A stretch of 64,000 bases of DNA. Origin: Brevibacillus agri (GTDB lineage Bacteria > Bacillota > Bacilli > Brevibacillales > Brevibacillaceae). This document shows, piece after piece, positions 2,876 to 25,296 of the stretch. The first letter of the stretch is position 1. Each line of letters opens with the position of its first letter. The notes beneath the pieces are model-generated. The model saw only the letters and a program-made list of their open reading frames with translations, searched no databases and had not been told where the DNA came from. The stretch spans positions 4,549,001 to 4,613,000 of the forward strand of contig NZ_CP026363.1 in NCBI RefSeq assembly GCF_004117055.1, given 5' to 3'. Made by a program: the position numbers and the translations under genes.

Positions 2876-3124
2876 TTACTGTGCCGTTTCTTCCAGGGAA
2901 GCCAGTACTTTTTTGATGCGGTTCGGGTTGAAGCCCAAAATTTTCTTTTCGCCGATGACGGTCAATGGTACCGACATCACGCCGAGGCGGCTCAGCTCTT
3001 GCGCAAATTCTTCCTTTTCGTCGATGTTGCGCTCTTCAAAAGAAATGTTTTGTTCCGTCAAATACGTTTTCAGTTGCTTGCAGAAGCCGCAGTTTGTGCT
3101 GGAATAAACGATTGCTTGTACCAT
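2876..3124 (-). CDS. glutaredoxin-like redox carrier (CGFC)
   Basis: 82-residue thioredoxin-fold protein with the active site CGFC at residues 12-15 and the cis-proline motif SVPLTV. This is the size and layout of NrdH/glutaredoxin-like carriers, not of thioredoxin (WCGPC). It lies 70 bases ahead of the peroxiredoxin and 30 bases behind the flavin reductase, so it most likely shuttles electrons from one to the other. The same trio (Cp34 reductase, Cp9 glutaredoxin homologue, Cp20 peroxiredoxin) is established as a peroxiredoxin-reducing system in Clostridium pasteurianum. Assignment to that role here rests on gene order. Confidence 0.88.
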   Translation of the reverse strand: MVQAIVYSSTNCGFCKQLKTYLTEQNISFEERNIDEKEEFAQELSRLGVMSVPLTVIGEKKILGFNPNRIKKVLASLEETAQ

Positions 3125-3154
3125 GTATCCATCTCTCCTTTTATGTTGGGGGAA

Positions 3155-4078
3155 TTATTTGTATTGGGGAACCACTTTGGAACGTTTGTGAATGTACTTG
3201 TCCACGGCCATCGCCGCAATCGCACCGTCTGCCGCTGCCACGACGGCTTGCTTGACCGGGGTTTTGCGCACCTCTCCGGCTCCGAACACGCCTGGAACAG
3301 AAGACTGCATGTATTCGTCGAGGATCATGAAGCCCTCGTCATCGAGCGGAACCTGGCCGTCGAGAAAATCCGTCCCCGGCTTGCTGCCGGACAGGAAGAC
3401 GAACACGCCGTCTACGGAAAGCACTTCCTCGTCGCCTGCCGCATTGCGGATGCGCAAACCTTCTACTGTATTCGTGCCGACGATCTCCAGTGGGCGGGTG
3501 CGGTACAGGATGTCTGTTTTCGGCAGCTCCGGCACCTCCTCCACGCCTTGCAGATCGGCGCGCGGCACCAAAAACGTAATTTTGCCCGCAAACTTGGTCA
3601 GCGCATGGGCTTCCTCCAGCGCTTCCTCCGTATCGCCAATCACGGCGACATGCTTGCCTTCATAAAACGCTCCGTCGCACGTCGCACATGTGCTGACGCC
3701 GCGTCCGAGCAGAGCTTCCTCTCCTGGCAGCATGCGGTTGCGCCCTTTTGAGCCAGTCGCCACGATGACCGCTTTTGCTTCAAACGTGCCGTGCGCGGTA
3801 AAAATGCTTTTGACTTCGTCCTCGACATCGACGGCTGAAATCGTCGTCTGGATAAACTCGGCACCGAAGCTCTCCGCCTGCCTGCGCATTTTGTCGAGCA
3901 GTTCTTTTCCCGTCAGTTCGCCTTCCACGCCAGGGTAGTTGGCGATTTTATGTGTCAGGGCAAGCGCACCTGAGCCTGGCGCCTTATCGATCACCAGCGT
4001 TTTCAGATTCCCCCTGGCTGTATATATCGCAGCGGATGTACCAGCCGGGCCGCCGCCGATTATGATTACATCGTACAT
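3155..4078 (-). CDS. thioredoxin-reductase-like flavoprotein with degenerate pyridine-nucleotide motif
   Basis: 307-residue FAD protein of the low-Mr thioredoxin reductase fold. The FAD site is GGGPAG at residues 8-13 and the redox disulfide is CATC at 131-134. The second Rossmann motif is unusual: where TrxB has GGGDSA and HRRxxxR for NADPH, this protein reads IGDTEEALEEA (about 147-157) and VPRADLQ (171-177). The C-terminal FAD motif is GAGE, not GAGD. NADPH use is therefore doubtful; NADH or another donor is more likely, as for the C. pasteurianum Cp34 enzyme. First gene of the PerR-type operon. The start at 4078 has GGGGGA upstream; an ATG 27 bases earlier is less likely. Confidence 0.88.
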   Translation of the reverse strand: MYDVIIIGGGPAGTSAAIYTARGNLKTLVIDKAPGSGALALTHKIANYPGVEGELTGKELLDKMRRQAESFGAEFIQTTISAVDVEDEVKSIFTAHGTFEAKAVIVATGSKGRNRMLPGEEALLGRGVSTCATCDGAFYEGKHVAVIGDTEEALEEAHALTKFAGKITFLVPRADLQGVEEVPELPKTDILYRTRPLEIVGTNTVEGLRIRNAAGDEEVLSVDGVFVFLSGSKPGTDFLDGQVPLDDEGFMILDEYMQSSVPGVFGAGEVRKTPVKQAVVAAADGAIAAMAVDKYIHKRSKVVPQYK

Positions 4079-4106
4079 GAATGGCTCCCCCTTTCTTTCT
4101 CTCAAT

Positions 4107-4121
4107 TTATAATTATTATTA
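4107..4121. promoter_or_regulatory. PerR box 1
   Basis: TTATAATTATTATTA matches the PerR consensus TTATAATNATTATAA at 13 of 14 defined positions. It lies just downstream of the -10 of the operon promoter, where binding would block transcription. Confidence 0.8.
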
Positions 4122-4137
4122 ACTAGGAACAGTTCTC

Positions 4138-4165
4138 ATTTTACTAGATATCAAGTAAAAGTCAA
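4138..4165 (-). promoter_or_regulatory. sigma-A promoter of the peroxide-defence operon
   Basis: On the minus strand a -35 TTGACT (4165-4160) and a -10 TAAAAT (4143-4138) are 16 bases apart, with a PerR box on each side. Confidence 0.75.
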
Positions 4166-4172
4166 TATCTTT

Positions 4173-4187
4173 TTATAATAATTTTAA
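4173..4187. promoter_or_regulatory. PerR box 2
   Basis: TTATAATAATTTTAA matches the PerR consensus at 13 of 14 defined positions. It lies just upstream of the -35 element. Confidence 0.75.
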
Positions 4188-4288
4188 ATAAGTAATTTTT
4201 ATCGGCTGATATGCCAGTCAAACGTATAGCGGACGAAAATGTGCTACTACTCCGTATTATTTTGCGATTCCGAATACAAGCGAACACG

Positions 4289-4317
4289 TTGACGAATCAA
4301 ACCATTCAGGATAAAGT
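4289..4317 (+). promoter_or_regulatory. candidate sigma-A promoter of nhaC
   Basis: TTGACG (4289-4294), 17-base spacer, TAAAGT (4312-4317). The leader to the nhaC start is about 120 bases and shows no clear riboswitch. Confidence 0.5.
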
Positions 4318-4443
4318 ACGCCTATCACTGGAACGCACAAAAGCGAAAAAGCAACAAAGCCAAAAAGCGCGAAAGCATGAAAGCCCACGTCTCTTTGCTT
4401 GCTGCTCGCTCGCGTTAGCCTGATTTTGCAAGGAGTTGCCATC

Positions 4444-5814
4444 ATGAACAAATCTATTTCATTTTCGCAAAGTATTTGGGTGCTTTTGGCGATCTTCGGC
4501 ATCCTGTTTCCTGCCTTGTTCTGGGGCAAAGTAGAGCCACACATGCCGCTTTTTGCCGCCACGATTGCGGCGGCCCCGCTCCTGCGGCTGTTCGGGGTGC
4601 CGTGGAAGCGGATGGAAGAAGGGCTGGTCAAAGGCATCCAGACCGCCATCGCCCCGATGCTGATCCTCTGTCTGATCGGGGTGTTGATCGGGGTCTGGAT
4701 GATGAGCGGAACGGTTCCGATGATCTTGCACCTTGGCATCTCGCTGATCTCGCCGGAGTACTTTACGATCAGCGCCCTCTTTTTGACCGTGATCGTCTCG
4801 AGCGTCACCGGCAGCACGTTTACGACGATCAGCACGATCGGCGTAGCGATGATGGGCGTCTCGACCGCACTCGGGCTCGACCCGCTAATGACAGCCGGGG
4901 CGATTATTTGCGGCGCCTGCTTCGGGGATAAAATGTCCCCGCTGTCAGACACGACCAACTTTGCGGCTGCGATTGCCAACGTCTCTTTGATGAATCACAT
5001 CAAATTCATGTCGCACACCGCGATTCCCGGCCTGCTGATTACGGCGATTTTCTTCGCCGTTCAGGGACAGTCCGCTGACGTAAGCCTGGAGGCGATCCAG
5101 GAAATCCAGACGGTGCTTGCGCAGCATTTTTCCCTGGGAATCACGACGCTTTTGCCTGCTGCCGTCGTGCTCGTCTGTTCTGCCTTGCGCAAGCCGATTT
5201 TGCCGACCCTCGTCTTCGGGATCTTGAGCGGAGTCGCGACTGCTGCTCTCGTGCAAGGCGTTCACTCCCCGGTCGAATGGATGAACGTCATGCAAAACGG
5301 CTTCGCCAGCGAAATCGCCAACGAAGCCGTTGCTTCTATCGTGAACAGGGGCGGGCTGTTGTCCATGACCTGGTCACTTGCCCTCATTCTCATCGCCCTG
5401 TCTCTCGGTGGTATTTTGCAGTACAGCGGTGTGTTCGAAGCCTTGTTTGCAGGCTTGATCCAGCGCATCCAAAAAGCGGCAGGCATGGTCGGACTGGCCG
5501 GCTCGTCGTCCATCCTCGTCAACCTTTTGACAGGCGAACAGTACTTGTCGATCCTGCTTCCGGGGCAAATGTTCCACGACGCCTTTGTCAAACAAGGGAT
5601 CGAAGGCAGACGGCTTTCCCGTACGCTCGAAGACTGCGGGACGCTCGTCAACCCGCTCATTCCTTGGGGCGTCAGCGGGGCCTTTTTCACCTCAACGTTG
5701 CACGTGGCGACAATCGACTACTTGCCGTATGTAATCTACCTGTGGATTTCGCCGCTGTTGACTTTCCTGTTTGCTCTGCGGCAGCCAAAAGTCACAGTCG
5801 AAACTAGACACTAG
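4444..5814 (+). CDS. nhaC: NhaC-family Na+/H+ antiporter
   Basis: 456-residue, strongly hydrophobic integral membrane protein with about ten or more predicted spans. The segment GACFGDKMSPLSDTT followed by NHIKFM is the hallmark of the NhaC ion-transporter family, which exchanges Na+ (sometimes malate/lactate) for protons. The start at 4444 has AAGGAG eight bases upstream; an earlier in-frame start lacks one. It is monocistronic. Its TAG stop overlaps the stop of the convergent diguanylate cyclase gene in a shared CTAG. Ion specificity cannot be read from sequence; some NhaC members carry organic acids in antiport. Confidence 0.88.
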   Translation: MNKSISFSQSIWVLLAIFGILFPALFWGKVEPHMPLFAATIAAAPLLRLFGVPWKRMEEGLVKGIQTAIAPMLILCLIGVLIGVWMMSGTVPMILHLGISLISPEYFTISALFLTVIVSSVTGSTFTTISTIGVAMMGVSTALGLDPLMTAGAIICGACFGDKMSPLSDTTNFAAAIANVSLMNHIKFMSHTAIPGLLITAIFFAVQGQSADVSLEAIQEIQTVLAQHFSLGITTLLPAAVVLVCSALRKPILPTLVFGILSGVATAALVQGVHSPVEWMNVMQNGFASEIANEAVASIVNRGGLLSMTWSLALILIALSLGGILQYSGVFEALFAGLIQRIQKAAGMVGLAGSSSILVNLLTGEQYLSILLPGQMFHDAFVKQGIEGRRLSRTLEDCGTLVNPLIPWGVSGAFFTSTLHVATIDYLPYVIYLWISPLLTFLFALRQPKVTVETRH

Positions 5815-7031
5815 CCTGTCGCATACACGGTCGTACAATTTTTCCCTCTGCGCTTGGAGCGGTACAGCGCCTCGTCTGCTGCCCGCTTCAAGCCGTCTGC
5901 CGTGTCGCTGTCGTCGGGAAAACGCGCGATGCCGACGCTGACCGCGATCGGGATGCAGCAATTGTCCTGCAATAATGGGTGCATGCGCAAAAAGTCGCGG
6001 ATCGCCCGCACCTTTTCCTCCGCTTCCTTCATCGTCGCCTTCGGGCAGAGCAGCATGAACTCGTCCCCCGCATAGCGGTAGGCCGTATTTTCTCGCCCTG
6101 CCACGGCTTTCATCGCCTCGGCGATTCTTCTAATCAGCTCATCTCCCGCGTGATGTCCGAAATGGTCGTTCACCAGTTTCAAACTGTCCGAATCGAGCAT
6201 AATCAACGCCACCGGGGAGCTTTCTTCTCCCAGCAGCTTTTCCAGATCGCGGTGGAACGCCCGGTAGTTGGCAAGTCCCGTCAGTTCATCCTGAAAAGAC
6301 ATCTGGTACATCCGCTCGTACAGACGCGCCGTCTCGATCGCGCTCGCCACCTGGAAGCCGATGATCTTCAAAAGCTCCTCGTGCTCCTTTTTGTAGGCAA
6401 ACTCGCGATAGGACTGTGCCGAAATGACGCCTTTGATCTGATTCCCCAGCATCAGCGGCACAAAAATACAGGTGTTCGTGTCGATCTCCGGGCTGCCCCA
6501 GCGAATCATTTCCGGCTCGCTCGGCTCGTCCTTCATCGTCCGAATGTGGATCGTTTGCCGGGTCTCAATCACCTTGGAGATCATCGCCTGGCCGTACGGA
6601 ACCGTAATCGGCCCGTAGTTGATGCCGTTGTCGATGCTGATCGGGATTCTGATCTCGCTGTCGCCCTCGTCAAAAAACGCGATGAAAAAGGCGTCGGCGC
6701 GCATCACGCGGGAGACCAGCTCAAAAGCCTTCCACAAAATCTTGTCTTCCTCAAACGTCTTCGCAAAAATATGGCTCAAGTCGTGCAAAATTTTCATGTG
6801 CTCCGACATCCACATCATTTCGGATACCTTGTCCCGCAACTCGCTGATTTTTTTCAGCAGCTCCTTGTGCCGCATCCCGTCTTCTGTTGCCAACACCTCG
6901 TCAATCTCGCGGGCTACCGCCTCGATCTCTTCCTGATCCACGGCGTCAACACGGCTGAGCCAGCCGCTATAACGCTCCAGCAGATGTCTTGCGTACGCTT
7001 CTCTTACGGCGTTGTTTTCATGCATGTACAA
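5811..7031 (-). CDS. GAF-GGDEF diguanylate cyclase (AGDEF variant)
   Basis: 406-residue soluble signalling protein. Residues about 1-75 are helical with a possible coiled coil. About 75-225 resemble a GAF sensor domain, and about 240-406 form a GGDEF domain beginning DELTGLANYRAFHRDL. The signature is RYAGDEF, a variant known to remain active in some cyclases. The upstream position that would hold the RxxD inhibitory site reads RENT, so product inhibition by c-di-GMP is probably absent. It would make c-di-GMP in response to an unknown ligand. Downstream of the DUF3870 and histidine kinase genes on the same strand, with 21 bases between it and the DUF3870 gene, so probably co-transcribed. Confidence 0.88.
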   Translation of the reverse strand: MYMHENNAVREAYARHLLERYSGWLSRVDAVDQEEIEAVAREIDEVLATEDGMRHKELLKKISELRDKVSEMMWMSEHMKILHDLSHIFAKTFEEDKILWKAFELVSRVMRADAFFIAFFDEGDSEIRIPISIDNGINYGPITVPYGQAMISKVIETRQTIHIRTMKDEPSEPEMIRWGSPEIDTNTCIFVPLMLGNQIKGVISAQSYREFAYKKEHEELLKIIGFQVASAIETARLYERMYQMSFQDELTGLANYRAFHRDLEKLLGEESSPVALIMLDSDSLKLVNDHFGHHAGDELIRRIAEAMKAVAGRENTAYRYAGDEFMLLCPKATMKEAEEKVRAIRDFLRMHPLLQDNCCIPIAVSVGIARFPDDSDTADGLKRAADEALYRSKRRGKNCTTVYATG

Positions 7032-7052
7032 CCCTCCGGCTATTGGGTAGGC

Positions 7053-7379
7053 TTACGCTTTTTTCTCGTGATAACGATCGACAGCCGCACGAATGGCCTG
7101 CAAAACAGCTCCCTGTCCGGGGGCGAGAAAACGCTCCTGGATCGTCTGCGCAATCTCCTGCATCCCCCCTGCCACTGACTTGCCCACGAGCAGACTGACC
7201 AGAAACTCGCTCGTCTTGTCCATCACAAAGGTAAAACTGGCATCGCATATGACGCCGTCATCGGCATCAATGATGAGCACACAGCCCACCATCGTCGACA
7301 CCTCGTACAGCGTCGTCCCTTTGGGGATTTGGGCAAATCCCGCTGTCAGCACTGTGTTTTTGTTTTTCCACTCAGCCAT
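7053..7379 (-). CDS. small DUF3870-type protein
   Basis: 108-residue soluble protein without signal peptide or membrane segment. Its fold-like layout (FAQIPKGTTLYEVSTMVG, then IDADDGVICDASFTFV, then a C-terminal helix) resembles DUF3870 proteins of Bacillales, whose function is not established. The ATG at 7379 is chosen because GGGGAGG stands eight bases before it; an ATG six bases earlier would be too close. It sits between the histidine kinase and the diguanylate cyclase and is probably in their operon. A role linking the two signalling proteins would be speculation. Confidence 0.6.
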   Translation of the reverse strand: MAEWKNKNTVLTAGFAQIPKGTTLYEVSTMVGCVLIIDADDGVICDASFTFVMDKTSEFLVSLLVGKSVAGGMQEIAQTIQERFLAPGQGAVLQAIRAAVDRYHEKKA

Positions 7380-7412
7380 CTGCATGTCCTCCCCTTCGCC
7401 ATTCGCCCCGCT

Positions 7413-8825
7413 CTAGCTGATGACGGGCAAACATACCTCCACTGTCGTTCCGATTCCTGGAGTGCTCATCAGCCGTAATGTTCCTCGATGGTTTTCGATG
7501 ATTCTGCGGCTGACCATCAGGCCGAGGCCGGTTCCCGTCTCCTTCGTGGTGAAGAAAGCCTCTCCCAGCCGGGCAAGCTGCTCCGCCGGGATGCCTACCC
7601 CATTGTCCTCAAAGCGGATGACCACCTTGTCGCCCTCGCACCATAGCCGGATGACGATTTCCCCACTGCCTGATGTAGCCTCGATACCGTTTTTCAAAAA
7701 GTTGATGAACGCTTGCTTCAACTGGTTTTCATCGCAGTGAACCATAGGCAACGGCGATTCAAACGCGACCTGGATCGTCACTTTTTGCAAAATCGCCTCT
7801 GTTTCCAATAACGTTACCACATGGGTGATGAGATTGGTCAAGTCGTGCACCTCAAAGGCAGACGCGTGCGGCTTCGCCAGCACCAACAGCTCGCTGACGA
7901 TCATCTCGATCCGCGCCAGCTCCGAGCTCATGATGGAAAAGTACTCCGGCTTGCGCATGCCGTCCTTTTGCATCAGTTGGATAAAGCCTTTCAACGAAGT
8001 CAGCGGATTGCGTATCTCATGGGCAATCCCCGCCGCCAACTGTCCCACCAGCGCCAGTTTTTCCGAGTTTTGCAAAAATTCATGCACCCTTTTGCGCTCT
8101 GTCATATCGCGTATCAATATGTAATGGCGTAGCTTGTCCTGAATGACCACAGATGTGCCGCAAACCTCCACATCCGTTCGCGTGCCGTCCAGGCGAATCA
8201 GCTCCACCTCAATCGGCGAGGTCGTCTCTCCCCGCTCCAGCCGCTTTTGCAGCTCGTGAATCAAAGGCATGTCGCGCGGGTGGAAAAAGGAAGTGAACGG
8301 ATAGGGCAAAAGCTCCTCGTACCCTCGTGCTCCCATGAGCCTGATTCCGGATTGGTTGACGTACTTCAGCTCTCCTTTTTCGTAGATAAAGGCCGCCTCC
8401 AGCGAGAGATCCAGCACCTTGCACGATTGGGCCTCCCTGCTGTCGGCCACGGCTTGCGACAGCTTTTGCACCATCGCGTAATAGCCAATCGTGGCACCTT
8501 CTGCCAAAAATGCGCCATACGTAATATGGACAGGTACCGGCGGACCAGCCTTGTGAGCGAAAACCGTGCAAAATGGCATCGGCTCCCCGTTTACTGCGCA
8601 TTGCGTCTGACGGCGCACTGTCTCCTGCTCCTCCGCGATGGCAAGCTTCCAAAACGGGTAGCCCTCCCACTCTTCTGCTGCGTAGCCTGTCAGCGCTTCG
8701 CAGGCGGGATTGCCTCTGCAAACGCCTCCTGATTGATCCAGCCAAAAAGCCGCTTGCACCATTTGCTCGAAGAAGGAGCGATAGAGAAGACTGCTCCTGC
8801 ACTCATTATCCAACAGGCCTTTCAT
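7413..8825 (-). CDS. PAS-PAS sensor histidine kinase, sporulation-kinase type
   Basis: 470 residues, no transmembrane segment. Two PAS domains (about 15-125 and 130-245) are followed by a HisKA dimerisation domain with the phospho-acceptor H-box AHEIRNPLTSLKGF (about 266-279). The HATPase domain has an N-box (FINFLKNGIEA) and G-boxes (EDNGVGIP, GTGLGL). This is the KinA/KinE-type soluble kinase architecture that feeds the Spo0F-Spo0A phosphorelay in sporulating Bacilli. No response regulator gene is adjacent, consistent with an orphan phosphorelay kinase. First gene of a likely operon with DUF3870 and the diguanylate cyclase. The true partner is not visible. Confidence 0.88.
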   Translation of the reverse strand: MKGLLDNECRSSLLYRSFFEQMVQAAFWLDQSGGVCRGNPACEALTGYAAEEWEGYPFWKLAIAEEQETVRRQTQCAVNGEPMPFCTVFAHKAGPPVPVHITYGAFLAEGATIGYYAMVQKLSQAVADSREAQSCKVLDLSLEAAFIYEKGELKYVNQSGIRLMGARGYEELLPYPFTSFFHPRDMPLIHELQKRLERGETTSPIEVELIRLDGTRTDVEVCGTSVVIQDKLRHYILIRDMTERKRVHEFLQNSEKLALVGQLAAGIAHEIRNPLTSLKGFIQLMQKDGMRKPEYFSIMSSELARIEMIVSELLVLAKPHASAFEVHDLTNLITHVVTLLETEAILQKVTIQVAFESPLPMVHCDENQLKQAFINFLKNGIEATSGSGEIVIRLWCEGDKVVIRFEDNGVGIPAEQLARLGEAFFTTKETGTGLGLMVSRRIIENHRGTLRLMSTPGIGTTVEVCLPVIS

Positions 8826-20345: not shown

Positions 20346-20525
20346 GTTTTGGGTGTGTAATTTGATACGATCACTGTCGAAATTCGCATATTCGTGCGAT
20401 GGTGACTACCTAGGAAAAGCGATTCAGTAGTGAGTGAATGCTATCCGCATTAGTTAAGAAAAACTATTTAGTAGATAGCTAAATTATCTTATGAGGTTTT
20501 TTATAAAAATTGACATTTAAAACAA
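20346..20525. other. left edge of AT-rich island, no gene
   Basis: Composition changes here from GC-rich to strongly AT-rich. I see no integrase, tRNA end or clear direct repeat that would mark an attachment site. TTGACA at 20510-20515 is followed 17 bases later by TATCTT, but that -10 falls inside the next reading frame. Confidence 0.4.
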
Positions 20526-21473
20526 ATGGATGTATCTTCACCAATATATGCCACTGAAAAACAAAGTAATTACAAAAAGTTAATTAATGAAGGATTATCA
20601 GTTGAAGATGCTTTATACTATTCCGAATTACAAGCCTCGCTTGATCAACTAAAAAAGGAAAATAAGACGATTGATGTTGATTCTGTACGTAGCTTGTCGG
20701 CAGTTGAGTATACAGATGATTATATTCGGAAAAATAAAAAAGAGTTTAGGGAGAAGATTTTGCAGCAGGATCCCGTTGCAATTAAAAAGGCTACTGAAAA
20801 TGCACTACAGTCTCACTTTGAAGGAAACGATTTATTAGCCAAATTAGTTAAAGAAGATATTGAGAAAAATGGAAAACCCAAAAGCTTCTACGAGATAACT
20901 TTTCCTAGCGGAGATCGCATGCAAGCAACTTTTGAAAGCGTAAAAGAAGTAGATTCTGACAGCGATCAAGTAGAAACGAACGCATCATCCCAGCCTTATG
21001 CTGGTCCATGGGGGTCAAATGTGACAACTATAGGTCAAGGAACTTTACCAAGCTCAAGTGGAAATTGGGGAACAAGCACCGATATAAAGTTCTATAATGC
21101 AGCGGGATACGCATCAAACTATCTTCAAATCAAATATACACTAGATAAAAAAAACACAAGCACTGCTGATGATGACACTGTTTCGGTCTACTATACCTAC
21201 TCCACTGCCTCTTCTTCAGGTATCATGGAGGTAGTTACTCCCAATCCAAATGTCGGGCGTCCCTATGATAAAGCTTCCAAATCTTCAAATCTGTACACAC
21301 AAACTTTTTCGGATGCTACTATGAAGCTTTCTGCCCAAGTAAGCGGTTCTTATAATTTTGTCGCAGGAGGTATTAGTGTTACCTTAACGCACTCGACGAT
21401 TTGGCATGAGTTCAGCATCATTGAAGTCATGTATCATGGACTCCCAATTTATTATGGTGGATATAAACTGTAA
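20526..21473 (+). CDS. unknown Ser/Thr-rich beta-type protein, N-terminus possibly lost
   Basis: 315 residues, not recognised. Residues 1-150 are charged and helical with a Glu/Lys/Asp bias. Residues about 150-315 are rich in Ser, Thr, Tyr and Gly and look like a beta-sandwich (GPWGSNVTTIGQG, SVYYTYST, SGSYNFVAGGISVTLTHS). The composition is that of a secreted protein, yet there is no signal peptide. The ATG has no ribosome site, and an in-frame TGA lies 12 bases upstream. The signal sequence may have been deleted when the island formed. AT-rich codon use contrasts with the flanks. It precedes a subtilisin gene and ends in its own terminator. Confidence 0.55.
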   Translation: MDVSSPIYATEKQSNYKKLINEGLSVEDALYYSELQASLDQLKKENKTIDVDSVRSLSAVEYTDDYIRKNKKEFREKILQQDPVAIKKATENALQSHFEGNDLLAKLVKEDIEKNGKPKSFYEITFPSGDRMQATFESVKEVDSDSDQVETNASSQPYAGPWGSNVTTIGQGTLPSSSGNWGTSTDIKFYNAAGYASNYLQIKYTLDKKNTSTADDDTVSVYYTYSTASSSGIMEVVTPNPNVGRPYDKASKSSNLYTQTFSDATMKLSAQVSGSYNFVAGGISVTLTHSTIWHEFSIIEVMYHGLPIYYGGYKL

Positions 21474-21485
21474 AGGGGCGCTAGA

Positions 21486-21519
21486 AGGGGATAGTTTTTT
21501 ATCCCCTCCTTTTAATTTG
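21486..21519 (+). terminator. hairpin between the unknown gene and the subtilisin gene
   Basis: GGGGAT (21487-21492) and ATCCCC (21501-21506) with a T-rich loop, followed by TCCTTTTAATTT. It may end the first gene, and it leaves the subtilisin start without an AGGAGG-like site. Confidence 0.55.
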
Positions 21520-21520
21520 T

Positions 21521-22468
21521 GTGATTATGTCGAGAAAAAAAATAATTTATATCTTTGCGATAGGAATTACATTAATTCTTATTGCTTTAAATATTAAAAT
21601 TGAAACTGATTTCAGATACCCCAATACACCAAATCTCGAAGCAATTCAAAATATGAATGGGTATCCTTTAAAAGTTAGAATTTCACAAGAAAAATTGTAT
21701 GGTGTGAAAATAGCGATAATTGATAGTGGTATAGACGGGAATCAAAAGAATCTAACACTAAATGAGATTGCTTCCTCACAAAGATTCGGTGATAAATCAC
21801 ACGGTACAATTATTGCTAGCGTGATTGGGGCTAGGGAATGCGAAAATCTGAATTTTAATGGAATACTCCCAGGAATAACGCTGTATACCTATGATATTCA
21901 TTCAGATACTTTAAATACTGAGACATTGTCTAAAGCTATAGATGAGGTTTCACACATAGGAGTTGATGTGATTAATATTAGCTTATCTACTTATAAAGAC
22001 ACCCCTTCCTTAAAAAACAGTGTTGAAAAAGCCGTAAATAGCGGAATCACGATCGTTGCATCCGTAGGAAACGATTCTTCTAAACAATACAGCTACCCAG
22101 CATCTTATAAAATACCTGGTGTAATCTCCGTTGGTGCTTTAGATGAAAACTTGGATGTTTGGTCGCTAAGTAACTTTAATGATACTGTTGATATTTTCGT
22201 GCCTGGAACAAAAATTTACTCAATAAATCATAAATTAAGTGGGGATAGCGTTGAAATTTTTAATGGAACATCGCTGGCTGCCCCATTGGTAACGACTTGG
22301 GTAGCCATGTTATTAGCAACAAACCCCAATTTGACACCAAAGAATATTGAAAGCATAATTCAAGAAACAGCTCGCCGCCACTTAGTAAATTGGAAGCAAA
22401 GTAGAGTAAATATTCAAATGGCAGATATTAATGGATCATTATTGAAGGCAATTAATTTCGTGGAGTGA
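21521..22468 (+). CDS. membrane-anchored subtilisin-like serine protease (S8)
   Basis: 315 residues. One hydrophobic segment at about 8-24 acts as signal anchor. The catalytic triad is complete: Asp68 (IAIIDSGIDG), His94 (KSHGTIIAS), Ser251 (NGTSLAAPL), with the oxyanion Asn184 in VASVGND. Between the anchor and the catalytic domain there are only about 40 residues, too few for the usual I9 inhibitor propeptide, so folding and activation may depend on another factor. A GTG (21521) or the ATG two codons later may start translation; neither has a clear ribosome site. AT-rich like its neighbours. The preceding secreted-type protein and following lipoprotein may be substrate and partner (inference). 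Confidence 0.85.
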   Translation: MIMSRKKIIYIFAIGITLILIALNIKIETDFRYPNTPNLEAIQNMNGYPLKVRISQEKLYGVKIAIIDSGIDGNQKNLTLNEIASSQRFGDKSHGTIIASVIGARECENLNFNGILPGITLYTYDIHSDTLNTETLSKAIDEVSHIGVDVINISLSTYKDTPSLKNSVEKAVNSGITIVASVGNDSSKQYSYPASYKIPGVISVGALDENLDVWSLSNFNDTVDIFVPGTKIYSINHKLSGDSVEIFNGTSLAAPLVTTWVAMLLATNPNLTPKNIESIIQETARRHLVNWKQSRVNIQMADINGSLLKAINFVE

Positions 22469-22472
22469 TAAT

Positions 22473-23108
22473 ATGAAACGAAGACTGATTTTTATAATCA
22501 CACTTATTCTTATTAGTGGTTGTAGTAATTCAGAGGTGCTTAACAAAGAACAACCGACTCAATCGATAAACAATGTCACCTATCCAGCCGATAATCCGCC
22601 TGTAGTTGGTGAGGCTGGGAATGAAAAAAGCATAGAAGAGCCTATCTATCAGAGATTGATTAAGTACTACAATAGTAATTCTATAAGTGAATTTGAGGTT
22701 ACTAACTATGCAAAAATTAGCAAGACCATTTTTTGTACGATTAACTTCAAAGTTGATAACAAACTACATTATGGGCTTGTTCAGGCTTATCCTAAAGATA
22801 AAAGGTGGGTCATTCAATCTATCAATGAAACCCCTGAAATTCCAGATTTAGCTGTAGTATTACAAATGAGTGTTGGGAAAGAACTGGTAGAAGAAAATGA
22901 AACTATAAAACAGTCGTATAGAATTTACTCAGGCTATATAAATGAGAAGCAGGTTAAAGAAATTAGAATTACTACCACAGATGATCGTATGTATGTAATC
23001 AAGATAGGTGATAATCAAAAACAGTTTCTTTATGCGTCTCCTCGTGAGGAGGTCAAAGCAAAATTCGTTGCTCTAGATCAGAACGGAAAGATTATTTACG
23101 AACAGTAA
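22473..23108 (+). CDS. lipoprotein of unknown function
   Basis: 211 residues. A short signal ends in the lipobox ISGC (Cys17), so the protein is probably anchored on the outer membrane face. The rest has two parts: about 20-120 including a region like small secreted domains (FCTINFKVDNKLHYGLVQAY), and about 130-211 (KQVKEIRITTTDDRMYVIKIGDN), reminiscent of lipoproteins that bind the peptidase of a neighbouring operon, but not recognisable as a family. Begins four bases after the subtilisin stop with GGAG eight bases before ATG, so the two are surely co-transcribed. Confidence 0.75.
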   Translation: MKRRLIFIITLILISGCSNSEVLNKEQPTQSINNVTYPADNPPVVGEAGNEKSIEEPIYQRLIKYYNSNSISEFEVTNYAKISKTIFCTINFKVDNKLHYGLVQAYPKDKRWVIQSINETPEIPDLAVVLQMSVGKELVEENETIKQSYRIYSGYINEKQVKEIRITTTDDRMYVIKIGDNQKQFLYASPREEVKAKFVALDQNGKIIYEQ

Positions 23109-23206
23109 TCAGTAGCACCTAAAAACAACTGAAAAGCATTCCCTATAATTAAAAGCCTTCTCTTTGAGAAAAAAACAATCTATCGGTGAAGTGGTCAAGA
23201 GAGAGC

Positions 23207-24255
23207 GTAAAAAGTTTTGTGTAAATGGTTAAACTTCCCAGTAAGGAGATGATCATTTATGCAAGACAAAAGAGACATGACGATCAAGGAGTTAGCGAAG
23301 GATTGCCGTACCATCGAGGACGTGCACGCCATGTTAAAGATTTGTTCCGCGACACCATTCAGCAGTTGTTTGAAGCAGAAATGGATGCTCATTTGGGCTA
23401 TGCCAAACATAGTTCTGACGGCGATCACACGGGAAATAGTCGGAATGGGTATAGCAAAAAGACGTTGAAAACAAAGTTTGGCCATACAGAAATTCGGGTA
23501 CCTCGTGACCGTAATGGAGAATTTGAACCTCACGTTGTGAAGAAGCATGAGACTACGGTAAATGGCTTAGAGGAGCAAATCATCGCACTCTACGCCAAAG
23601 GAATGTCCACACGAGACATTGAGGAACACATGAAGGAGTTGTATGGGATTGACGTATCTCCTGCCATGGTTAGTAAGGTGACCGACAAGATTATGCCTTT
23701 GGTAGCGGAATGGCAATGCAGACCGCTTGATCGTGTCTATCCCATCGTGTTCCTGGATGCCATTCACTTTAAAGTTCGGCAAGAAAATCGGATCATCAAC
23801 AAAGCGGCCTACAGCGTTCTTGGCATTTCGATGTCGGGTCATAAGGACATTTTGGGCATTTATACAACGAACATAATCGAGGGGTATCATCGGCAACTCC
23901 GTAAGGTCACAAAGACCAAAACGGCCTATCCATCCGACGATGCTCTGCGGAAAATCATCTACCTCGCTACCGTAAATGCATCGAAGAAGTGGACGATGCC
24001 GCTTCGAAGTTGGAAAGAATGTATCTCACAACTGGCCATCCATTTTGGAGATCGATTGCAAGGCGAACTGTCCGCATAACCCAACTGTTGAGTCGGCTTG
24101 ACATGGAGCCTCTGCGGGCATGATTTCTTGCGATGGGGCGATGCCAGTCAACCATGCATCGCATGGCAAACGAGCCTATCATGCCCGCCCCTCCATGTAA
24201 AGCCGCCCACGTAACCATCCGCCTGTTAAAAACCCATTTACACAAAAAAATTTAC
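23207..24255 (+). mobile_element. IS256-family element, internally deleted remnant
   Basis: The ends carry imperfect inverted repeats sharing TTTTGTGTAAATGG: left about 23207-23230, right about 24234-24255. The element is 1049 bp, shorter than the 1.3-1.5 kb usual for IS256. Most of the loss is a deletion inside the transposase. An unusual 170-bp GC-rich stretch lies between the transposase stop and the right end. No 8-bp target duplication directly abuts the ends. Confidence 0.85.
23259..24079 (+). pseudogene. IS256-family transposase, frameshifted and internally deleted
   Basis: The ATG at 23259 with AAGGAG upstream starts a normal IS256 N-terminus (KRDMTIKELAKDCRTIEDV). At about 23339 one base is missing after AAG, and the sequence continues in another frame with DLFRDTIQQLFEAEMDAHLGY. 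At about 23860 GHKDILGI joins directly to YTTNIIEGYHRQ. In intact members about 115-120 residues lie there, including the second catalytic Asp and the conserved Cys/His region. The first Asp (FLDAIHFKV) and the Glu (NIIEGYHRQ) remain. Transposase activity is therefore impossible from this copy. Confidence 0.9.
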
Positions 24256-24865
24256 ATTCCCTATGGATGTTCGTGAATTTATAAGATTCGCCCTTTGATA
24301 AGGTGATAGATCCATCGTAAGCTGCTGTTAACGCAAACTTGCCTTTTGCCGGGGCCTCTTCTTCGAAATTGGCAGGCTCTGCTTCGTTTGTTTTTGCTGA
24401 TGACGTGCCATCAGCAATCTTTTCTTCTGTATCAGTCTGGACAGGTTCTTCCGAAGGGGCAGTTACGGTTACATTGATGGGAAGAACTTCCTTCTCGTAG
24501 TTTGCCACCAGAGTTGTGTTTCCCACGCTTTTGGCATAAATCGTTCCCCTTGAAACGGAAACAACTTTGGGATCTTCTACTTGCCATTCTGTTTGTTTGG
24601 AAACATCCGTCTTACTGCCATCGCTGTAAATGGCGTTGATTTCGACTTTTTGAGAGTCTCCGATTTTTAGCGTCATTTCTTTTATAGATGAATCAATAGA
24701 TACTAGCTCGGGACCCGGATTCGTATTGCTTTCGTCGACGGATGAAACAGCTTCCTGAGCTAATGCCGTGTTGTTAAACATGAGTGGCTGGCTAAAAAAA
24801 TGGATGGGTTCCAGCAATAGGCAAAACATAACAAAGCAGCACAAAAGTCGTTTTAAGTGAATCAA
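24179..24865 (-). pseudogene. secreted Ig-like (Big_2) protein truncated by the IS element
   Basis: TTG start at 24865 with GGAAGGG upstream, then a signal peptide ending near residue 35 (NNTALAQ). A bacterial Ig-like domain follows (about 50-135): MTLKIGDSQKVEINAIYSDG, DVSKQTEWQVEDPKVVSVS, GNTTLVANYEKEVLPINVTV. Next is an acidic linker and the start of another beta domain (GSITLSKGESYKFTN). At about 24256 the reading frame enters the IS256 right end, so the last 25 or so residues are IS sequence and the remaining domain is missing. Such proteins usually bind cell wall or polysaccharide. The missing part is not recognisable on the other side of the IS. Confidence 0.75.
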
Positions 24866-25296
24866 ATCTTACACATCCCTTCCTCTATTTCCAATTAATT
24901 GATATGCAGACTTGGTTATACTCTTAAATACTCTGCGTGCAAGATGATTCATAGACAAACGAATTTGTCGATGATCCAAAATACCCCGTCACGATTGCCT
25001 CCGCATCACTCCCCCGCTCGCTTCCGTATCCGCAAGTCGCCACGCCCTCACTAAACCGCGCCCATTCAACACCGCTTATCTTGACAATCCCCCCTCAAAA
25101 CTCCCCTTGTAATATCTCCAAACAAAACGAGTATGCATAACAATAACGCCCCCTAGTCCTGCTGTATAAAAATGGAACAAATTAATATACAAAATAACAA
25201 CCTCCTCTAACTCACTACCATCTCCACCCTTCGACAAATCTGCGGTTTCCGGCGGTTCCCCTGCACTCGTGGCCCTTTTTCATTACAAAATCCTTA
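24866..25296. other. 431-bp intergenic region, island right edge
   Basis: No gene seen. It holds a minus-strand promoter candidate for the truncated Ig-like gene (TTGCAC, 16 bases, TATAAC at about 24916-24943). It also has an inverted repeat GACAAA-CGAA-TTTGTC at 24954-24969. The plus strand from about 25080 to 25260 is notably poor in G. GC content returns to host level near 25380. Confidence 0.4.

What the first reader, a model, noticed from the sequence alone, without database searches (positions are those of the whole stretch)
20526..23108. AT-rich trio: signal-less secreted-type protein, minimal subtilisin, lipoprotein
The three genes differ sharply in base composition from the flanks. 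The protease lacks a normal inhibitor propeptide, the first protein looks secreted but has lost or never had a signal peptide, and the lipoprotein is co-transcribed with the protease. None is assignable to a known cassette, so it may be an undescribed protease-substrate or competition module.
Basis: partly seen in the sequence, partly recalled or inferred. Interest (0 to 1): 0.6.

Follow-up and report, generated by a model that had tools for sequence, protein, structure and literature searches.

The report
Secreted protein, tethered protease, lipoprotein cassette
Three low-GC genes in a Brevibacillus-type genome are one copy of a rare, horizontally moving cassette that makes an exported protein of unknown family, a membrane-tethered protease and a surface lipoprotein, most likely a bacterial competition module whose exported part has lost its export signal in this copy.

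Summary
The three genes are real and about 20 points poorer in GC than the left flank. They form a conserved cassette: Brevibacillus fluminis has the same trio, 78% identical in DNA from codon 10 of gene 1 to the lipoprotein stop, and two genomes of another order of the class have it too, one split by a transposon. Relatives of protein 1 have a signal peptide; the window copy is 5'-truncated. Across 7 loci gene 1 is damaged in 5, the lipoprotein is open in 7, and 3 lack the protease. The trio proteases are one clade of propeptide-less subtilases with a hydrophobic N-terminus. On plasmids, 6 of 6 other such subtilases stood beside secreted proteins, two of them SAR2788-family putative toxins. 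Protein 1 matches no known family. Best reading: an exported effector, processed by the tethered protease, with the lipoprotein protecting the producer; it works like a bacteriocin cassette (nisin logic, closticin-574-like precursor). Toxicity, cleavage and immunity are inferred.

The parts
20526..21473 (+). Gene 1: exported protein of unknown family; this copy lacks the signal peptide (5'-truncated)
   Evidence: 88% identical to B. fluminis protein 1, which has a signal peptide; no family
20353..20525 (.). Low-GC stretch of unknown origin between the conserved left flank and gene 1
   Evidence: Homology to G013 and G017 ends at 20352; only short chance-level matches elsewhere in the own genome and the fetched loci
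21486..21507 (+). Terminator-like hairpin directly after gene 1
   Evidence: hairpin at the corresponding place in 6 of 7 loci, weak on its own in the window (z -1.9, 12 of 200 shuffles fold as well)
21527..22468 (+). Propeptide-less S8 subtilase with hydrophobic N-terminal segment (GTG start at 21521 possible)
   Evidence: PF00082 141.7 bits; D66, H92, N182, S249 invariant in 4 trio proteases; Asp at residue 66
22473..23108 (+). Lipoprotein, proposed self-protection factor
   Evidence: Lipobox by eye; next to gene 1 or its remains in 7 of 7 loci (in G128 beyond transposon genes and the protease) and open in all
23195..24267 (+). IS256-family remnant bordering the cassette, transposase ORF 23225-24079 shortened inside
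   Evidence: NF033543 235 bits in two stretches; end repeats 76% complementary
24262..24865 (-). 5' remnant of a polymorphic-toxin-type gene at this site, cut by the IS remnant
   Evidence: Matches the start of the G017 gene, which has a PT-HINT domain there

Best explanation
The trio is a mobile competition cassette of the bacteriocin kind. Gene 1 encodes a Sec-exported precursor of about 310 aa after signal removal in relatives (a helix-rich N-terminal and a strand-rich C-terminal part, from a low-confidence prediction). A propeptide-less subtilase held at the outer face of the membrane by its N-terminus cleaves it outside the cell and releases or activates the effector part. The lipoprotein on the same surface shields the producer. 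A terminator-like hairpin after gene 1 would keep the precursor in excess over protease and lipoprotein. Shown: the recurring trio, signal peptides in relatives, protease with catalytic residues and no propeptide, lipobox, hairpin at a shared place, low GC in the six hosts measured, different surroundings. Inferred: that the N-terminus is an uncleaved anchor, that the protease cuts protein 1, that the product harms other cells, that the lipoprotein protects. In this window the cassette is decaying: gene 1 has lost its export signal.
For: Trio in the same order in 4 of 7 loci over two orders of Bacilli. Patchy: 6 of 398 genomes of a class sample after dropping one weak hit. GC far below the host in six hosts. 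Lipoprotein open in 7 of 7 loci while gene 1 is damaged in 5 of 7. Protease clade 100/100. Hairpin after gene 1 in 6 of 7 loci. Tethered propeptide-less subtilases on plasmids stand beside secreted proteins in 6 of 6 loci against 3 of 12 for other subtilases, two neighbours being SAR2788-family putative toxins. Precedent: nisin has a surface S8 protease and a protective lipoprotein, and the nisin O cluster lacks the protease (passages); closticin 574 is a 309-aa secreted pre-protein cut outside by an unidentified proteinase (passages).
Against: No toxin domain is recognised in protein 1. Protein 1 is the most conserved of the three between window and B. fluminis (dN 0.063, dS 1.53), which a self-use protein would also show. 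Three loci lack the protease. Five strong lipoprotein relatives stand alone, so the family has other uses. Between G010 and G003 gene 1 was itself under constraint for most of the time, so lipoprotein retention is weaker evidence than it looks. The tethered/other split of plasmid subtilases was made after seeing the loci, and the four fetched as a fresh test gave no tethered one. The hairpin is weak on its own in the window and B. fluminis, and G128 showed none. The trio proteases are not in the same clade as the plasmid ones.
Confidence: 0.45

Rival explanations
1. Surface-structure or enzyme module for the cell's own use: protein 1 is a matrix, adhesin or hydrolytic protein, the protease trims or turns it over, the lipoprotein helps to fold or hold it.
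For: Protein 1 is strongly conserved (dN/dS about 0.04); solo lipoproteins occur.
Against: Rare and patchy, low GC, damaged in 5 of 7 loci; tethered propeptide-less subtilases elsewhere stand beside putative toxins.
Confidence: 0.22
2. Protease and lipoprotein are the functional pair: the protease cuts and releases the lipoprotein, or the lipoprotein inhibits the protease, as with the Listeria metzincin and TIMP-like lipoprotein; protein 1 is an associated cargo.
For: Adjacent genes in 4 of 4 trios; precedent of a metzincin that cleaves a neighbouring lipoprotein (abstract); weak cystatin-like fold hits for part of the lipoprotein (E 0.02).
Against: In 3 of 7 loci the lipoprotein stands with gene 1 and no protease, and 5 of 11 strong relatives stand alone. 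The lipoprotein model has mean pLDDT 51.
Confidence: 0.12
3. Signalling module: protein 1 is a precursor of an extracellular signal cut out by the protease and sensed with help of the lipoprotein.
For: An exported precursor with a surface protease and a surface lipoprotein would suit it.
Against: No receptor or regulator travels with the trio in the loci read.
Confidence: 0.07
4. This copy is simply decaying foreign DNA without present function in the host, whatever the cassette does elsewhere.
For: Gene 1 truncated, no clear ribosome-binding site before its ATG (by eye), shortened IS256 and a cut toxin-type gene next door.
Against: Protease and lipoprotein are open and conserved against B. 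fluminis (dN/dS about 0.20 and 0.11), so any decay is recent. Compatible with the best explanation for the family.
Confidence: 0.35

Closest known systems
Closticin 574 (Clostridium tyrobutyricum) type of bacteriocin precursor
   Same: Large precursor (309 aa there) with a signal peptide, cut outside the cell (passages of PMC10888436)
   Different: No sequence link tested; its proteinase is unidentified, here a candidate is encoded next door; effector activity of protein 1 unknown
Nisin-type lantibiotic clusters (NisP, NisI)
   Same: S8 protease acting outside the cell plus a lipoprotein that protects the producer (passages of PMC10885120 and PMC10257480)
   Different: Precursor is a protein of over 300 aa, not a short modified peptide; NisP is made as a prepro-protein and anchored to peptidoglycan, this protease has no propeptide and an N-terminal hydrophobic segment
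SAR2788-family putative toxins beside tethered subtilases on Bacillota plasmids (L109, L111)
   Same: Secreted protein next to a propeptide-less subtilase with a tether-like N-terminus
   Different: Protein 1 is not SAR2788 (no hit); the proteases are of other clades; the third gene differs and is no lipoprotein by eye
Type VII secretion mycosin (TIGR03921)
   Same: Best NCBIfam match of the protease (133 bits)
   Different: Far below the cut-off of 278.75 bits; hydrophobic segment is N-terminal here (mycosins carry a C-terminal one, recalled)
Listeria metzincin / TIMP-like lipoprotein pair
   Same: Secreted protease with a neighbouring lipoprotein (abstract of PMC8235301)
   Different: Different protease class; a third exported protein is present here and the lipoprotein also occurs without the protease

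Membership tests
Subtilase S8 (PF00082) | Profile match above cut-off and catalytic Asp, His, Asn, Ser | tested here: met
   141.7 bits against 21.8; D66, H92, N182, S249 invariant in 4 of 4 trio proteases
Subtilase S8 (PF00082) | I9-type propeptide, usual in secreted subtilisins (recalled) | tested here: not met
   Asp at residue 66-75 in 4 of 4 trio proteases against 129-155 in three propeptide-bearing plasmid ones
Type VII mycosin (TIGR03921) | Score above the equivalog cut-off | tested here: not met
   133 against 278.75 bits
Lantibiotic (LanP/LanI) cluster | Short precursor peptide | tested here: not met
   Protein 1 is 315 aa here and 338 aa in B. fluminis
Lantibiotic (LanP/LanI) cluster | Lanthionine synthetase genes nearby | not tested
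   No family search of the wider neighbourhoods for them was made; none was noticed in the ORF lists
Closticin-574-type bacteriocin | Signal peptide on a long precursor | tested here: met
   Hydrophobic N-terminus in B. fluminis, G168 and G010; not in the window copy
Closticin-574-type bacteriocin | Sequence relation to closticin 574 | not tested
   Its sequence was not fetched
Closticin-574-type bacteriocin | Antimicrobial activity of a C-terminal product | not testable with these tools
   Needs expression and assay
Toxin-immunity pair | Protective gene adjacent to the effector gene and kept when the effector is lost | tested here: inconclusive
   Lipoprotein with gene 1 or its remains in 7 of 7 loci and open in all, gene 1 damaged in 5 of 7; but 5 of 11 strong lipoproteins stand alone and protection is untested
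SAR2788 putative toxin (NF038340) | Profile match above cut-off | tested here: not met
   No hit for window protein 1 at E up to 1 or B. fluminis protein 1 at E up to 0.1

The most novel reading that the evidence does not exclude
Surface-tethered subtilases that have dispensed with the propeptide are a general, repeatedly assembled partner of secreted protein toxins in Bacillota: dedicated maturases that free an effector domain outside the cell. The trio is a separate lineage of this design, with an undescribed effector family (protein 1) and a lipoprotein immunity factor. Such proteases would be candidates for the unidentified specific proteinase of closticin-574-like precursors.
Probability: 0.35. 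Interest if true: 0.72.

Novelty: new variant of a known kind. Interest (0 to 1): 0.52.

Why it matters
If true, the cassette names a new exported effector family, a likely immunity factor and, more widely, a class of tethered subtilases to look for beside orphan secreted toxins. It would make the open question of how large Sec-exported bacteriocin precursors of Gram-positive bacteria are processed directly testable in laboratory strains.

Tried and rejected
Led nowhere. Structure prediction of protein 1 from two sequences gave mean pLDDT 35 and was not used for a fold search; that of the lipoprotein gave 51, with weak cystatin/NTF2-like hits and none at E 0.001. Protein 1 relatives: none in phages (window protein, G168 protein), none in plasmids (window, G010 and G168 proteins), none confirmed in viral contigs; PDB hits of the profile (best E 0.016; C-terminal part best 0.39) look like chance. 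PADLOC hits of the protease are to generic subtilase and IetS models. A beta-strand moment test of the C-terminal part was reached by 30, 29, 7 and 290 of 500 shuffles in four sequences, so nothing is built on it. A link between protein 1 and the 240-aa P. flexa secreted protein was too weak (hhalign probability 7.5%). The single genome-contig scan returned one locus, B. fluminis.

Considered and rejected: a frameshift hiding a signal peptide in the window (no hydrophobic stretch in the three upstream frames); the protease as a chance neighbour (trio clade 100/100 and shared order); the lipoprotein as an inhibitor of this protease only (it occurs without it).

Rows dropped before counts: G284 (E 0.004) and G102 (E 0.003) as weak protein 1 hits; second hits of one locus (G003, G010, G021) counted with the first; 25 lipoprotein hits with E from 2.6e-6 to 1e-3 not inspected; L109 left out of the Fisher test because its record is not annotated there. 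The 18 plasmid loci are 5 of the 30 rows listed (499 records matched) and 13 of the 50 rows listed (295 matched); some records stand in both lists and Enterococcus rows were not fetched. The first four were taken for query coverage, the next ten for variety after the pattern was noticed, the last four as a fresh test: none of these proved tethered and propeptide-less, so they only add to the control class, where none of the four had a qualifying neighbour. In one search the regular expressions misplaced the Asn of B. fluminis and the Ser of G168; the alignment was used. One search ended in an error after printing the figures used here. Signal-like N-termini were judged by a simple hydrophobicity rule or by eye, not by a trained predictor.
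Full report
What is there. The window lies in a 5.37-Mb single-contig genome; one genome of its family is Brevibacillus fluminis. Three genes at 20526-21473, 21521-22468 and 22473-23108 on + have 38, 34 and 34% GC against 56% for the left flank. Protein 1 matches no family, the second protein is an S8 subtilase, the third is a lipoprotein of no family.

The window copy of gene 1 is truncated. B. fluminis JCM 15716 (G032; L012, L015) has the same trio in the same order. DNA identity of 78% runs from window 20555 to 23109, that is from codon 10 of gene 1 to the lipoprotein stop, and stops there on both sides. Its protein 1 begins with a typical signal peptide, as do those of G168 and G010. The window protein starts in what corresponds to the last residues of that signal peptide, with an in-frame stop just upstream and no hydrophobic stretch in the three upstream frames.

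How common it is. Protein 1 was found in 4 of 39 genomes of the family, 7 of 398 of a class sample (G284 dropped as weak), 3 of 14 of the order of G168 (G102 dropped as weak) and 1 of 398 of a phylum sample, the window itself. This gives seven loci. Four have the order protein 1, protease, lipoprotein: window, B. fluminis, G168 (L025) and G128 (L026, where transposon genes lie between gene 1 and the protease). Three loci of the window's genus, G010, G003 and G021, have gene 1 or its remains followed by the lipoprotein without a protease. G168 and G128 belong to one other order of the class. The window and B. fluminis share nothing but the trio in the stretches compared, and by eye the surroundings of G168, G128 and the G010/G003/G021 group differ again, the last three sharing a downstream gene. 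In the six hosts measured the genes are far lower in GC than their surroundings, for example 34 against 48-49% in B. fluminis, 39 against 56% in G168, 36 against 53% in G010; G128 was not measured. Repeated transfer from low-GC sources is the simple reading.

State of the genes. Gene 1 is full-length with a signal peptide in 2 of 7 loci (B. fluminis, G168). It is damaged in five: 5' truncation in the window, a frameshift near the end in G010, a stop and a frameshift in G003, fragments in G021 and a C-terminal piece in G128. The lipoprotein is open in 7 of 7. Between window and B. fluminis all three genes are constrained: dN and dS are 0.063 and 1.53 for protein 1, 0.192 and 0.975 for the protease, 0.134 and 1.24 for the lipoprotein (NG86), so the truncation is recent. 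Lipoproteins of G010, G003 and G021 are also constrained (dN 0.19-0.24, dS 1.4-2.1), but so is the shared open part of gene 1 of G010 and G003 (0.146 and 1.38); most of that constraint predates the damage, which weakens the argument from a retained lipoprotein. In the same class sample the lipoprotein family is wider: 36 of 398 genomes at E 0.001, of which 11 are strong (E 2e-8 or better). Six of the 11 stand with gene 1 or its remains and five stand alone in the stretches read.

Expression. A G+C-rich hairpin with a T-rich tail follows gene 1 in the window, B. fluminis, G168 (where it overlaps the start of the protease gene), G010 and G003, and stands before the lipoprotein in G021; the 78 bases examined in G128 showed none. 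Against dinucleotide shuffles the z-scores are -1.9, -1.4, -4.9, -3.5, -3.6 and -4.4. The pattern scan names it in the window and G168 but not in B. fluminis, and terminator-like matches as a whole are no commoner than in shuffles. The shared position is the better argument. A leaky terminator that keeps protein 1 in excess is an inference.

The protease. In 4 of 4 trio proteases a hydrophobic N-terminal segment is followed by the catalytic domain, with the catalytic Asp at residue 66-75 and no propeptide; D66, H92, N182 and S249 are invariant. They fall on one side of a fully supported branch among 21 subtilases (100/100). That the N-terminus is an uncleaved anchor is inferred from the lack of an obvious cleavage site.

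The wider pattern. I fetched 18 plasmid subtilase loci from the listings. Six subtilases (L100, L102, L103, L109, L111, L113) have a hydrophobic N-terminus (lipobox-like in L111 and L113, by eye) and no propeptide. All six stand by a signal-peptide-bearing protein of 187-325 aa; in L100 an IS701 gene lies between. Two of these neighbours are SAR2788-family putative toxins (112 and 197 bits, cut-off 50) and one ends in a DUF4258-like stretch below cut-off (20.1 against 25 bits); the others match no family. Of the other twelve subtilases three have such a neighbour (L101; L104, of an immunity/bacteriocin fusion family, 301 bits; L106, lipoprotein-like) and nine do not. By my own arithmetic the hypergeometric chance of 6 of 6 against 3 of 12 is 0.0045, but the split was made after seeing the loci. 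A rule-based count in 13 annotated loci found signal-like N-termini in 11 of 24 adjacent genes against 9 of 66 others (Fisher p 0.002); some of the 11 are small membrane proteins. The tethered plasmid proteases lie outside the trio clade and in more than one place in the tree, though only 5 of 18 inner branches are firmly supported, so separate origins are likely but not shown.

The site. Homology with G013 and G017 runs to window 20352; with G017 it resumes at 24262-24463 and 24714-24949. In G017 the place holds a 1597-aa gene with a PT-HINT domain, a polymorphic-toxin feature. The window keeps only the start of that gene, cut by an IS256 remnant. The trio thus sits at a site that elsewhere hosts a toxin-type gene, which is suggestive only.

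Interpretation. The most economical reading is an exported effector with a dedicated tethered protease and a protective lipoprotein. Nisin gives the logic of an S8 protease outside the cell plus a lipoprotein that protects the producer, and the nisin O cluster lacks the protease (passages of PMC10885120 and PMC10257480). Closticin 574 gives the precedent of a 309-aa pre-protein with a signal peptide, cut outside by a general or specific proteinase that is not identified (passages of PMC10888436); the closticin-like product tested in that paper showed no activity against its two indicators. Passages of a review on propionibacteria describe further bacteriocins cut from longer precursors (PMC5756557); passages of PMC11322243 added nothing. 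Membership in these families is not claimed. Against the reading stand the lack of a recognised toxin domain, the strong conservation of protein 1 and the loci without protease. Rivals are a structural or enzymatic surface module, a protease-lipoprotein pair like the Listeria metzincin and TIMP-like protein (abstract of PMC8235301) and a signalling module. Eight searches of the held library listed no paper whose title or shown abstract describes such a cassette; that is a limited search. PMC9973311, the first SAR2788 paper listed, was seen only in the listing.

Noticed in passing
L059 (G017) 2954-7747; window 24262-24865: A 1597-aa gene with a PT-HINT (pretoxin) domain at the same site in G017, followed by a 123-aa ORF that may be its immunity gene; only its start survives in the window.
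   Followed up: partly
window 23195-24267: IS256-family element with a transposase ORF of 284 aa, apparently shortened inside, bordering the cassette.
   Followed up: partly
window 20510-20538: A TTGACA-17-TATCTT promoter-like match (10 of 12) straddles the start of truncated gene 1; such matches as a whole are no commoner than in shuffles.
   Followed up: no
L109 5001-7459: Niallia megaplasmid: tethered subtilase, SAR2788-family putative toxin two bases... directly downstream, then a 176-aa ORF that may be an immunity gene; the record is unannotated there.
   Followed up: partly
L113 2513-5033: Bacillus altitudinis plasmid pPOD2000: a lipobox-bearing subtilase between two secreted proteins of 219 and 187 aa without a family.
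   Followed up: partly
L108 4896-6667 and L112 5067-6975: Subtilases without a signal-like N-terminus directly followed by a gene annotated as endonuclease in two genera, perhaps another two-gene module.
   Followed up: no
L026 940-1689: A second lipoprotein-like ORF of 249 aa follows the trio lipoprotein in G128.
   Followed up: no
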